DNA of 42,744 nucleotides from positions 1 through 42,744 of the IMG/VR virus record IMGVR_UViG_3300031621_000009, one strand, 5' to 3'. This DNA comes from a virus. Shown piece by piece: positions 29,874 through 42,744 of the stretch. Both the position numbers and the translations under genes were made by a program. The notes beneath the pieces are model-generated. The model saw nothing but the letters and a program-made list of their open reading frames with translations. It was not told the origin of the DNA and searched no databases. Numbering within the stretch: the stretch's first letter is position 1; each line of letters starts with the position of its first letter.

Positions 29874-31481
29874 ATGGCATCTTTTACTAAAAATTCTTAT
29901 CTCGGAAACCCACAGGTCAAACGCGACGGTGTGTCTGAGGAGTGGGATAAAAAACAACTGCGCGAATATCGCAAGTGTATGAATAACCCTGCTTACTTTT
30001 GTAAAAAGTATGTTAAGGTCGTGCACCTAGATAGAGGTCTGGTACCTTTTAAGTTATATGATTATCAAGAGGAGATGTTTAACCACTTCAATGATAATCG
30101 ATTCTCCATTGTTCTTGCTTGTCGACAGTCCGGTAAATCTATATCGTCTGTAGGTTACATCCTATGGTACTCTCTATTCCACCCAGAGAAGACTATTGCT
30201 ATCCTTGCTAACAAGGGTGCGACTGCACGTGAGATGTTATCTCGTGTTACATTGATGTTAGAGAATCTTCCGTTCTTCCTCCAGCCTGGATGTAAGGCAC
30301 TCAACAAAGGGTCTATAGAATTCTCTAACAACTCACGAATCATTGCGGCTGCAACGTCTGGGTCTTCTATTCGTGGTATGTCGGTCAACCTATTGTTCCT
30401 AGATGAGTTTGCATTCGTAGAGAATGCGGCAGAGTTCTACACTTCTACATACCCAGTAATCTCATCTGGTGTGGACACAAAGGTTATCATAACAAGTACC
30501 GCAAACGGTATCGGTAATACTTACCAGAAGATATGGGAAGGTGCGGTACAGAAGGTTAATGAATATAAACCATTCCGTGTGGATTGGTGGGATGTGCCTG
30601 GCAGAGATGAGAAGTGGAAAGCACAAACTATCGCAAACACTTCGCAGTTACAGTTTGACCAAGAGTTTGGTAATACATTCTTTGGTACTGGTAATACTCT
30701 TATTGAGGGTCAAGTACTTCTTGACTTACGTGCTAGAGAACCTATTAGAAGATTAGAAGGTGGTGACCTATTAGTCTATGAAGACACAATCGAAGATCAC
30801 CAGTATATCATGACCGTAGATGTTTGTCAAGGGCGTGGTCAGGATTATTCTACATTTAATATCTTCGATGTTTCGGTACAGCCATTTAAACAAGTCTGTG
30901 TTTATCGCAACAATAGAATATCCCCGATACTATATCCTAATATCATTTACAAATATGCCACTGCATATAATGAAGCATATGCTGTTATTGAAAATAACGA
31001 TCAAGGAATGGTGGTGTGTGTTGGATTGTATCAAGATTTAGAATATGAGAACATCCACTTAGAGTCAGCAATCAAGGCAGACTCCATTGGTATTCGTATG
31101 GACAGAAAGGTTAAACGAATCGGGTGTTCGTCAATTAAGGATATCATAGAAAACCATAAACTGGATCTCGTTGATGAGAATACTATTATGGAGGTGTCGA
31201 CTTTCATATCTAAAGGAACATCTTTCGAAGCTTCGACTGGTAACCACGATGACTTAATGATGAATCTGGTGATGTTTGGTTATTTTGTTAGCACACAGTC
31301 TTTCGGTGATATGACCGATGTGAACATAAAACAAATGTTATTCGATCAACGTATGAAAGAGATTGATGACGATGTATTGCCATTTGGAATTTATGACAAC
31401 GGATTAGAGAATATTCCGGTGCCCGTTAATGATGATCCATATAGCATGGATTGGGCGACATATGACCCCGAAGCTTGGTAA
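29874..31481 (+). CDS. 17: gp17-like terminase large subunit
   Basis: 535 residues (T4 gp17 has 610). The ATPase domain has Walker A ACRQSGKS at residues 82-89, Walker B LLFLDE at 173-178 and the coupling motif TSTANG a little further on. The nuclease domain has the catalytic Asp in MTVDVCQGRGQDYS (D316), the IENNDQG segment and the HDD pair (D459, D460) that complete an RNase H-like active site. It pumps DNA into the prohead through the portal and cuts it. All key residues seen are intact. The C-terminus (PYSMDWATYDPEAW) is Trp/acid-rich as usual for marine members. Confidence 0.97.
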   Translation: MASFTKNSYLGNPQVKRDGVSEEWDKKQLREYRKCMNNPAYFCKKYVKVVHLDRGLVPFKLYDYQEEMFNHFNDNRFSIVLACRQSGKSISSVGYILWYSLFHPEKTIAILANKGATAREMLSRVTLMLENLPFFLQPGCKALNKGSIEFSNNSRIIAAATSGSSIRGMSVNLLFLDEFAFVENAAEFYTSTYPVISSGVDTKVIITSTANGIGNTYQKIWEGAVQKVNEYKPFRVDWWDVPGRDEKWKAQTIANTSQLQFDQEFGNTFFGTGNTLIEGQVLLDLRAREPIRRLEGGDLLVYEDTIEDHQYIMTVDVCQGRGQDYSTFNIFDVSVQPFKQVCVYRNNRISPILYPNIIYKYATAYNEAYAVIENNDQGMVVCVGLYQDLEYENIHLESAIKADSIGIRMDRKVKRIGCSSIKDIIENHKLDLVDENTIMEVSTFISKGTSFEASTGNHDDLMMNLVMFGYFVSTQSFGDMTDVNIKQMLFDQRMKEIDDDVLPFGIYDNGLENIPVPVNDDPYSMDWATYDPEAW

Positions 31482-40588: not shown

Positions 40589-40741
40589 ATGTATGATACA
40601 GAAGACCTACAGAGGGCAGAGCAACTGCACCACCTAGGACATAAACTAGAAATTGATATTATTGATTTAGCAAAAATTATTTATGAGCATAGACAACAAA
40701 ATTCGAATCAGGATGTTGAACCACAGTTACTTCGCGGTTGA
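40589..40741 (+). CDS. Small 50-residue ORF between uvsY and uvsW
   Basis: Starts at an ATG 10 bases after an AAAGGAT ribosome-binding site and ends inside uvsW, overlapping its start by 59 bases. The peptide is His/Gln-rich and helical (LQRAEQLHHLGHKLEIDIIDLAKIIYEH). uvsW itself has no visible ribosome-binding site at 40683, so this ORF may exist to couple its translation. T4 also has small ORFs in this place (uvsY.-1, uvsY.-2); kinship cannot be shown here. Confidence 0.5.
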   Translation: MYDTEDLQRAEQLHHLGHKLEIDIIDLAKIIYEHRQQNSNQDVEPQLLRG

Positions 40742-42209
40742 AGCACACCCTGCACAAGAGAATGAGTTAAGAGAGTATTTTTCGTTTTTTGTTCCGGGCT
40801 ATAAATTTATGCCTGCGTTCAAGTCTCGTCATTGGGACGGCAAAGTAAAACTCTACAACATGGTTACTAAACAAATGAACGTAGGGTTGTATCAGCAACT
40901 ACGTCGTTTTTGTGCAGATCGATTTTACCAGTTGGAAATACTTGAGCATGAATATTATGGTGTACCATCGTTTAAGGATGATATTGACCATCCTGCTCTT
41001 ATTGACTTTATAGCTGCTTTAGATGCTCCATTCAAACCTAGAGACTACCAGTACAAAGCAATTGCGCATGGAGTAGAGAATCAGAGATGTGTTCTTCTTA
41101 GTCCTACAGGCAGTGGTAAGTCCTTTATCATATACAATCTTCTCCGGTATTGCTATGAAGTGACCGAAGGAAAGATTCTGGTCATAGTACCAACCACGTC
41201 TCTAGTTGAACAGATGTATAAAGACTTCGCTGATTATGGCTATGATGTGGATGAGTTCTGCCACAAGATCTATTCTGGTAAGGAGAAGGTTACTGATAAG
41301 AGAGTTATTATCTCTACATGGCAGTCGATCTATAAGTTTGGTAAGGAATGGTTCGAACAGTTTAACACTGTCTTTGGTGATGAAGTACATCTTTTCAAAG
41401 CAAAGTCTCTGTCTACTATGATGGACAAGTGTGGTGAAGCAAGATATCGTTTTGGTCTTACAGGGACGCTTGACGGCACTGAAACTAATAAGTTAGTACT
41501 AGAAGGTTTATTCGGGCCTGTGTTTACGGTGACTAGAACCGTAGAATTGCAAAAGAATAAACAACTAGCAGAGTTGGACATATCAATTCTGCTGTTAAGG
41601 TATCATAGTGATATCTGTAATATGATGAAAGACAAGAACTATCAAGAAGAACTTGATTATATTGTCACATATGAACCACGTAATAAGTTTATAAGTAAGA
41701 TTGCATTAGATCAAACAGGTAATACTTTAGTTATGTTTCAGTTTGTTGAGAAGCATGGTAAGGTATTATATGAAATGATTAAGTCTATGGCAGCAGATGG
41801 TCGTAAAGTGTTTTATGTTTCTGGTGAAGTAGATGTTACTGATCGCGAACAAATACGAGGTATTGTAGAAAAAGAAAATGACTCAATTATTGTTGCCTCT
41901 CTTGGCACTTTCAGCACTGGCATCAACATCCGCAACTTGCATAATATTGTATTTGCGACTCCATCCAAGTCTCAGGTCAAAGTCTTGCAGTCAGTTGGCC
42001 GTGGTCTCCGCCAGTCTGATGATGGTAGGACTACTAAGCTTATTGATATCGCTGACGATCTCCATGTCAACGGTCATAAGAATTTTACACTGAAACATAG
42101 CGCCGAAAGGATTAAGATATATACTAAGGAAGGATTTGCTTATAAAGTGTATCCTATTGACTTAAAACCTACAAGGATAGAGAATGATGACGAAGAGTTC
42201 TTCAGCTAG
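40683..42209 (+). CDS. uvsW: UvsW-like DNA/RNA helicase
   Basis: 508 residues, close to T4 UvsW. The N-terminal ~90 residues are the UvsW-specific domain (LREYFSFFVPGYKFMPAFKSRHWDG). The superfamily 2 motor has Walker A SPTGSGKS at residues 140-147, DEVH at 233-236, the TGTL motif near 260, and C-terminal motifs VASLGTFSTGIN and QSVGRGLRQ. It unwinds branched DNA and R-loops and helps T4 move from origin- to recombination-dependent replication. All motor motifs are intact. Its end overlaps the next gene by 26 bases. Confidence 0.95.
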   Translation: MSIDNKIRIRMLNHSYFAVEAHPAQENELREYFSFFVPGYKFMPAFKSRHWDGKVKLYNMVTKQMNVGLYQQLRRFCADRFYQLEILEHEYYGVPSFKDDIDHPALIDFIAALDAPFKPRDYQYKAIAHGVENQRCVLLSPTGSGKSFIIYNLLRYCYEVTEGKILVIVPTTSLVEQMYKDFADYGYDVDEFCHKIYSGKEKVTDKRVIISTWQSIYKFGKEWFEQFNTVFGDEVHLFKAKSLSTMMDKCGEARYRFGLTGTLDGTETNKLVLEGLFGPVFTVTRTVELQKNKQLAELDISILLLRYHSDICNMMKDKNYQEELDYIVTYEPRNKFISKIALDQTGNTLVMFQFVEKHGKVLYEMIKSMAADGRKVFYVSGEVDVTDREQIRGIVEKENDSIIVASLGTFSTGINIRNLHNIVFATPSKSQVKVLQSVGRGLRQSDDGRTTKLIDIADDLHVNGHKNFTLKHSAERIKIYTKEGFAYKVYPIDLKPTRIENDDEEFFS

Positions 42210-42606
42210 ACATTTGAAGTTAGTTACAGGTGAAGAAATCATCTGTGAAGTTTTAGACGAATCTCCAGATTCTATAGTCGTTAATAATGCTATGGCTTTA
42301 ACTCAAAACACAATGAAAACTGGTGAGAAGTTTTTTACCTTTAAAACTTATATGATTTATCAGGATACTCCTATGAATTGTATTCTTGTTTTTACTGATA
42401 AGATTATGTCTTTAGCCATTCCTACTCAAGAGATGGTTACCCAGTATGATAGAGCTTTGGTTGAGATGGCTCATTACATAGAAGAATCATTGGATGATGA
42501 CATGGAAGATGATCTATCTTTAAATGAATTTTTAGATGAAATGAAGAAAGAGTCTAAGAGCAAAGAGATGTTAGATTCTGATACTGATGGAATGTTAATG
42601 AACTAA
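42184..42606 (+). CDS. Acidic protein with possible Sm-like N-terminal domain
   Basis: 140 residues; two adjacent ATG codons (42184, 42187) lie inside the end of uvsW. Residues ~9-75 (LKLVTGEEIICEVLDESPDSIVVNNAMAL, then FKTYMIYQDTPMNCILVFTDKI) have the strand order and the 'G..I...V' turn of Sm/LSm-like barrels seen in small proteins of marine T4-like phages. The last ~50 residues are very acidic (EESLDDDMEDDLSLNEFLDEM). Function is unknown; RNA or polymerase binding would be a guess. Overlap with uvsW suggests co-expression. Confidence 0.65.
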   Translation: MMTKSSSARHLKLVTGEEIICEVLDESPDSIVVNNAMALTQNTMKTGEKFFTFKTYMIYQDTPMNCILVFTDKIMSLAIPTQEMVTQYDRALVEMAHYIEESLDDDMEDDLSLNEFLDEMKKESKSKEMLDSDTDGMLMN

Positions 42607-42639
42607 TTTTTATATTCTCCCCTCTGGGACTAGAAAGAT

Positions 42640-42668
42640 ATTATACACTAAAAAAACAGAACTGTCAA
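42640..42668 (-). promoter_or_regulatory. Perfect-consensus sigma70 promoter on the minus strand
   Basis: Read on the minus strand: TTGACA (42668-42663), a 17-base spacer, TATAAT (42645-42640). Transcription would start near 42633 and run left, antisense to the acidic-protein gene and uvsW. No leftward ORF over 60 codons occurs in the following kilobase. Confidence 0.65.
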
Positions 42669-42674
42669 GGGCAA

Positions 42675-42744
42675 ATGAAAATAAAATACTATCCTTATAT
42701 TATACTACCAATCGGAACCTTTATTCCTAGAAGGTTTGCCGCAG
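42675..42744 (+). CDS. Possible start of a truncated gene
   Basis: An ATG at 42675 opens a frame that stays open to the window edge (MKIKYYPYIILPIGTFIPRR and on, 23 codons). It has a poor AAGGG ribosome-binding site very close to the start. It is too short to identify and may be chance. Confidence 0.3.
   Translation, partial: MKIKYYPYIILPIGTFIPRRFAA

What the first reader, a model, noticed from the sequence alone, without database searches (positions are those of the whole stretch)
42640..42668. Perfect sigma70 promoter pointing antisense to uvsW
TTGACA-N17-TATAAT on the minus strand. With equal base use a perfect 12-base match at this spacing is expected about 0.005 times in a window this long, counting both strands. 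No leftward ORF over 60 codons follows for about 1 kb, so it may make an antisense RNA early in infection that restrains the late operon or uvsW, or it may be a relic of an early gene.
Basis: partly seen in the sequence, partly recalled or inferred. Interest (0 to 1): 0.6.

Follow-up and report, generated by a model that had tools for sequence, protein, structure and literature searches.

The report
Conserved antisense promoter ending late genes
In T4-like ocean phages (family Kyanoviridae) the stretch between the late genes and the late sigma-factor gene nearly always carries a strong host-type promoter pointing backwards into the late genes, with no gene to read, so it probably makes an antisense RNA or opposing transcription that restrains the late genes; I found no description of it in the open literature searched here.

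Summary
In detail: TTGACA-N17-TATAAT lies on the minus strand at 42668-42640 and is the only perfect sigma70 site in the window (0.05 expected). The nearest antisense gene is uvsW.1 (140 aa), then uvsW. The site is neither chance nor relic. In 176 distinct uvsW.1 junctions (cyanophages, pelagiphages, the window's clade), 151 have a minus-strand site of at least 11/12 in the 100 nt after the uvsW.1 stop, against 0 of 784 control stretches. It is kept when genes are inserted before gp55 (38 of 41) with no sense promoter nearby (0 of 41), so it is not half of a bidirectional promoter. Hexamers are conserved; spacers are much less so. No conserved ORF, RNA fold, terminator or Rfam match follows. 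A covarying inverted repeat abuts the -10 in many members. Best reading: antisense transcription by host-type polymerase that dampens the 3' end of the late operon (uvsW.1/uvsW) until the gp55 switch. Promoter and conservation are shown; transcript, timing and effect are inferred. Chief rival: an R-loop replication origin. The Syn9 transcription-start study (Doron et al. 2016, from memory) was not held, so an earlier sighting cannot be excluded.

The parts
42663..42668 (-). -35 hexamer TTGACA of the antisense promoter
   Evidence: exact match; conserved in 98% of distinct cyanophage, 86% of window-clade and 64% of pelagiphage sites in exact form
42640..42645 (-). -10 hexamer TATAAT of the antisense promoter, 17 bp from the -35
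   Evidence: exact match; exact in 100% of distinct window-clade and 85% of pelagiphage sites, mostly TAGAAT/TACAAT in cyanophages
42631..42633 (-). expected transcription start, 7-9 nt after the -10
   Evidence: inference from sigma70 spacing; not mapped
42611..42625 (-). conserved G-rich leader AGAGGGGAGAATATA, recurring in varied form across the window's clade
   Evidence: alignment of relatives
42184..42606 (+). uvsW.1 (140 aa), the gene directly antisense to the predicted transcript
   Evidence: PHROG 527/471, shared with S-PM2 and HTVC008M
40683..42209 (+). uvsW helicase, next antisense gene
   Evidence: Pfam UvsW_N, ResIII, DEAD
42675..42744 (+). start of the next rightward gene (protease-like in L003), cut off by the contig end; its start codon is 7 bases past the -35
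   Evidence: L003 continues the same sequence

Best explanation
The site is a real, selected sigma70-type promoter at the boundary between the late block (ending uvsY-uvsW-uvsW.1) and the middle block (gp55, gp47/46, replication genes). Host-type RNA polymerase, which by sequence also serves the middle promoters of these phages, should fire leftward from it before and during the middle phase. The transcript is non-coding and runs antisense into uvsW.1 and uvsW. Opposing polymerases and/or antisense RNA should keep the 3' end of the late operon, including the R-loop-unwinding helicase UvsW, low until gp55-type polymerase takes over, and may also hinder read-through between the late and middle units. 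Shown here: promoter sequence, position, conservation, independence from the gp55 promoter, absence of a conserved ORF, RNA body or terminator. Inferred: transcript, timing, repression. I hold the promoter itself at about 0.93 and the repression mechanism at about 0.45.
For: 151 of 176 distinct junctions score 11/12 or more on the minus strand within 100 nt of the uvsW.1 stop, against 0 of 784 control stretches. Present in S-PM2, Syn1, S-RIM2, S-H9-1, ACG-2014d/f, S-SKS1, MED4-213 and HTVC008M. Kept in 38 of 41 junctions with inserted genes, where no sense site lies in the same 100 nt. Hexamers 1.81 and 1.65 bits per base, spacer 0.43. In C48C1 and three other genomes the middle block carries 17-37 sense sites of 11/12 or more and 1-2 antisense; in three of the four the junction is the only perfect antisense site of the late block. 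No conserved ORF, RNA fold, terminator or Rfam family. T4 UvsW is late and removes origin R-loops (PMC3016281). 3'-end antisense promoters repress genes in E. coli in proportion to their strength (PMC4731013).
Against: No transcript has been seen. Polymerase from one promoter at the far 3' end may have little effect on a heavily transcribed late operon. The antisense RNA length is unknown. The start-site inverted repeat is not explained by this mechanism. The distinct junctions are related, so their number overstates independent evidence.
Confidence: 0.45

Rival explanations
1. Replication origin: the promoter launches a leftward RNA that stays as an R-loop and primes DNA synthesis, as at T4 ori(uvsY) and ori(34); the neighbouring UvsW later removes it.
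For: Strong promoter without a gene at one fixed place in the family; T4 origins need only a middle promoter and an unwinding element, and R-loop formation there needs no specific sequence (PMC3016281), which fits the lack of downstream conservation. The inverted repeat pairs better on the non-template strand.
Against: No GC or AT skew switch at the junction in C48C1, G001 or G002; skew follows gene direction. The 100 nt after the start are only slightly richer in A+T than the locus in two groups and poorer in pelagiphages. The G-rich leader is not universal.
Confidence: 0.13
2. Insulator: colliding leftward polymerases stop late transcription from running into gp55 and the middle genes, in place of a terminator.
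For: Position at the end of the late block; kept whether gp55 or other genes follow.
Against: Late read-through into gp55 would not obviously be harmful. Overlaps with the best explanation and is hard to separate by sequence.
Confidence: 0.13
3. Antisense RNA that protects late mRNA from RNase E rather than repressing it.
For: Antisense RNAs covering cyanophage P-SSP7 transcripts are reported to protect them from RNase E (PMC9692554).
Against: One promoter at the end of one operon; sigma70-type firing should precede late mRNA. P-SSP7 is a T7-like phage.
Confidence: 0.09
4. Promoter of a short trans-acting RNA or a tiny peptide.
For: A short G-rich, Shine-Dalgarno-like leader recurs; some distant relatives have a start codon after it.
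Against: No conserved frame or start codon, no fold beyond shuffles from the expected start onward, no Rfam match, no clear synonymous constraint in uvsW.1.
Confidence: 0.1
5. Chance match, relic of a lost gene, or the back half of a bidirectional gp55 promoter.
For: In C48C1 and some relatives the antisense and gp55 promoters are back to back.
Against: Conserved in 151 of 176 junctions against 0 of 784 controls; conserved without any sense promoter nearby; hexamers conserved while the spacer drifts.
Confidence: 0.03

Closest known systems
Host-like middle promoters of T4-like cyanophages (Syn9 work of Doron et al. 2016; from memory, paper not held)
   Same: Same consensus and spacing as the sense promoters in front of middle genes.
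   Different: Those point into genes; this one points out of the middle block into late genes and often carries a start-site inverted repeat that the gp55 promoters lack.
CfrI antisense RNA of cyanophage S-PM2 (PMC2984593)
   Same: Antisense transcription in a T4-like cyanophage, function unknown.
   Different: CfrI lies at psbA and a homing endonuclease gene; its transcript was shown experimentally. This site is at uvsW.1/gp55 in most of the family and no transcript is shown.
T4 ori(uvsY)/ori(34) R-loop origins (PMC3016281)
   Same: A middle-type promoter close to uvsY/uvsW.
   Different: T4 uses MotA-dependent promoters and an unwinding element; here no unwinding element or skew switch was found, and no origin activity is known.
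Synthetic 3'-end antisense promoters of Brophy and Voigt (PMC4731013)
   Same: Reverse promoter at the 3' end of a gene, which tunes its expression.
   Different: Engineered, in E. coli; here natural, without a recognised terminator, effect unmeasured.

Membership tests
sigma70-type promoter | -35 and -10 hexamers at 16-18 bp | tested here: met
   12/12 at 17 bp
sigma70-type promoter | Selective conservation of hexamers over spacer | tested here: met
   1.81/1.65 bits against 0.43; 151 of 176 junctions
sigma70-type promoter | Initiates a transcript | not testable with these tools
   no RNA data for this phage or its relatives were available
cis-antisense RNA | Promoter directed into an opposing gene with no ORF of its own | tested here: met
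cis-antisense RNA | Detected antisense transcript that changes the sense gene | not testable with these tools
   needs strand-specific RNA data
R-loop replication origin (T4 type) | A+T-rich unwinding element downstream of the promoter | tested here: inconclusive
   A+T of +1..+100 against locus: 0.626/0.593, 0.689/0.653, 0.657/0.693 in three groups
R-loop replication origin (T4 type) | Skew switch or strand change of transcription at the site (seen at some T4 origins) | tested here: not met
   genes run rightward on both sides
T4-type late promoter | TATAAATA | tested here: not met
   13 on the plus strand, 0 on the minus strand of the window
Known structured RNA (Rfam) | Match to an Rfam covariance model | tested here: not met

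The most novel reading that the evidence does not exclude
The promoter and its start-site hairpin form a replication origin of the Kyanoviridae: a host-type promoter with no gene, whose non-template strand folds at the start site, launches an R-loop primer that the neighbouring UvsW later removes. A less bold version: a family-wide antisense switch that times uvsW and the end of the late operon.
Probability: 0.12. Interest if true: 0.85.

Novelty: new variant of a known kind. Interest (0 to 1): 0.6.

Why it matters
Kyanoviridae are common ocean phages whose known hosts include Synechococcus, Prochlorococcus, SAR11 and methylotrophs. A regulatory site at one place in most of them, with no gene behind it, suggests a shared control step at the late/middle boundary. 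It gives a precise position to check in existing strand-specific infection RNA-seq. If it controls uvsW or starts replication, it bears on how these phages time the move from early to late replication, where the T4 middle-mode factors MotA and Asi are reported missing (PMC2984593).

Tried and rejected
Exact 29-mer search in viral contigs: no hit; conservation is in the hexamers, not the whole string. Antisense promoter array over the late block: C48C1 has 10 antisense sites of 11/12 or more against about 0.7 expected, but three other genomes have 3-5 against 0.8-1.5, partly a recurring site inside terL that may be imposed by coding sequence; not general. Leftward ORF, downstream RNA structure, Rfam, tRNA, conserved leftward terminator, synonymous constraint in uvsW.1, origin by skew: all negative or weak. 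Reading the repeat as a plus-strand terminator: imperfect pairs are mostly G.T on the minus strand (12 to 0 in pelagiphages, 11 to 1 in cyanophages, 7 to 1 in the window clade; but 0 to 4 in the small distant group), which argues against plus-strand RNA. Doron et al. 2016 was not held.

Full report
OBSERVATION. The minus strand reads TTGACA-GTTCTGTTTTTTTAGTG-TATAAT from 42668 to 42640. It is the only perfect site for spacers of 15-19 bp; dinucleotide shuffles expect 0.05. The gap between the uvsW.1 stop (42606) and the next rightward start codon (42675) holds the whole promoter. The window is a complete 42,744-base virus record, so the site is close to a contig end, but a near-identical relative (L003, UvsW 98.6% identical) continues past it and has both hexamers unchanged, with two spacer changes.

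CONTEXT. The window is late DNA: long rightward genes, with 13 TATAAATA late promoters on the plus strand and none on the minus. Its end reads uvsY, uvsW, uvsW.1. In L003 two small genes follow (a protease-like protein and a cytidylyltransferase-like protein), then gp55, the late sigma factor. In the complete relative C48C1 (Kyanoviridae) the late block runs from about 117.6 kb through the start of the circular record to 21.3 kb, and gp55 opens the middle block. The site therefore sits on the late/middle boundary. The middle blocks of C48C1 and three other genomes carry 17-37 sense sigma70 sites of 11/12 or better and only 1-2 antisense, so perfect host-type sites are the middle-gene promoter type of this clade.

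CONSERVATION. In the first 63 junctions the minus strand after uvsW.1 has a 12/12 site in 44, while shuffles average 8.3. Extending to cyanophages and pelagiphages gave 176 distinct junctions: 76 at 12/12, 75 at 11/12, 20 at 10/12; 784 control stretches from the same loci gave none at 11 or more on that strand. Named phages include S-PM2, Syn1, S-RIM2, S-H9-1, ACG-2014d, ACG-2014f, S-SKS1, MED4-213 (10/12) and HTVC008M (12/12); Melnitz is weaker, and Stenotrophomonas phage YB07, with another gene order, lacks it. Distinct junctions are not independent lineages, so these counts describe spread, not a probability. Across 101 sites with a 17-bp spacer the hexamers hold 1.81 and 1.65 bits per base and the spacer 0.43.

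INDEPENDENCE. Where gp55 follows directly, a sense promoter often lies back to back with the antisense one. Where genes are inserted (gap over 250 bp), 38 of 41 keep the antisense site at 11/12 or more and none has a sense site within the same 100 nt; in the window's clade the sense promoter sits just before gp55 in 24 of 25. The antisense promoter is thus kept for its own sake.

WHAT FOLLOWS THE PROMOTER. No conserved start codon or frame, no fold beyond shuffles from the expected start onward, no Rfam family, no conserved intrinsic terminator within 2 kb, and no clear loss of synonymous variation in uvsW.1. Selection therefore seems to act on transcription itself, plus a short leader: AGGGGAGAATATA-like in the window's clade and AGGGTTCAA-like in cyanophages.

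THE START-SITE REPEAT. Directly after the -10 many members have an inverted repeat around a TGT that falls at the expected start, e.g. ACCCA-TG-TGGGT, AACGG-TGT-CCGTT, AGGCA-TG-TGCCT, AACTCT-GTA-AGGGTT. In pelagiphages, with 30 different left arms, own arms pair far better than arms swapped between phages (Watson-Crick score 8.35 against 3.83; 0 of 300 permutations reach it). In cyanophages, whose arms hardly vary, the swap test is uninformative. Imperfect pairs are mostly G.T on the minus strand (12 to 0 in pelagiphages, 11 to 1 in cyanophages; the small distant group L015-L048 shows the reverse, 0 to 4). The sense gp55 promoters lack the repeat. It is weak in the window itself. With a canonical start the left arm would not be transcribed, so this is either an operator-like or non-template-strand DNA element, or the start is unusually close to the -10. 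I leave it unexplained.

MECHANISM. Most likely, host-type polymerase transcribes leftward before the gp55 switch and holds down the 3' end of the late operon. uvsW is a plausible object: in T4 it is expressed from a late promoter and its helicase removes the R-loops that prime early replication (PMC3016281), so early leakage could be harmful. In E. coli an antisense promoter at the 3' end of a gene represses it in proportion to its strength (PMC4731013). That these phages behave so is inference. Rivals are an R-loop origin, an insulator, a short RNA, and an RNA that shields late mRNA from RNase E (reported for cyanophage P-SSP7; PMC9692554).

PRIOR KNOWLEDGE. CfrI of S-PM2 is an antisense RNA at another locus (PMC2984593). 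Sigma70-like motifs before early-gene homologues of S-PM2 and Syn9, and the lack of MotA/Asi homologues, are reviewed there. The Syn9 transcription-start study was not available, so an earlier sighting of this start site is possible.

VERDICT. Observation confirmed; antisense-promoter reading supported by deep conservation; effect on late genes or uvsW plausible but untested; relic reading rejected.

Noticed in passing
L003:3492-4282 and equivalent gaps in other relatives: The uvsW.1/gp55 junction is an insertion spot: in different relatives gp55 follows directly or after about 0.5-1.3 kb; in L003 the insert is an HEKVH-motif protease-like protein and a cytidylyltransferase-like protein.
   Followed up: partly
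Just after the -10 of the antisense promoter, e.g. L270, L297, L164, L167: Inverted repeat centred on the expected start, with freely varying but matching arms in pelagiphages; mostly G.T-tolerant on the minus strand. Role unknown.
   Followed up: partly
C48C1 (OQ984149.1) late block, 117.6 kb to 21.4 kb: Ten antisense sigma70-like sites of 11/12 or more against about 0.7 expected; not repeated in three related genomes.
   Followed up: partly
window 30802-30830, minus strand, and equivalents in C48C1, G001, G002, G003: An 11/12 antisense sigma70-like site inside the large terminase gene recurs in relatives; it may be imposed by the protein sequence, which was not tested.
   Followed up: no
window 4768-38923, plus strand: Thirteen exact TATAAATA T4-type late promoter motifs, all sense, none on the minus strand.
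   Followed up: no
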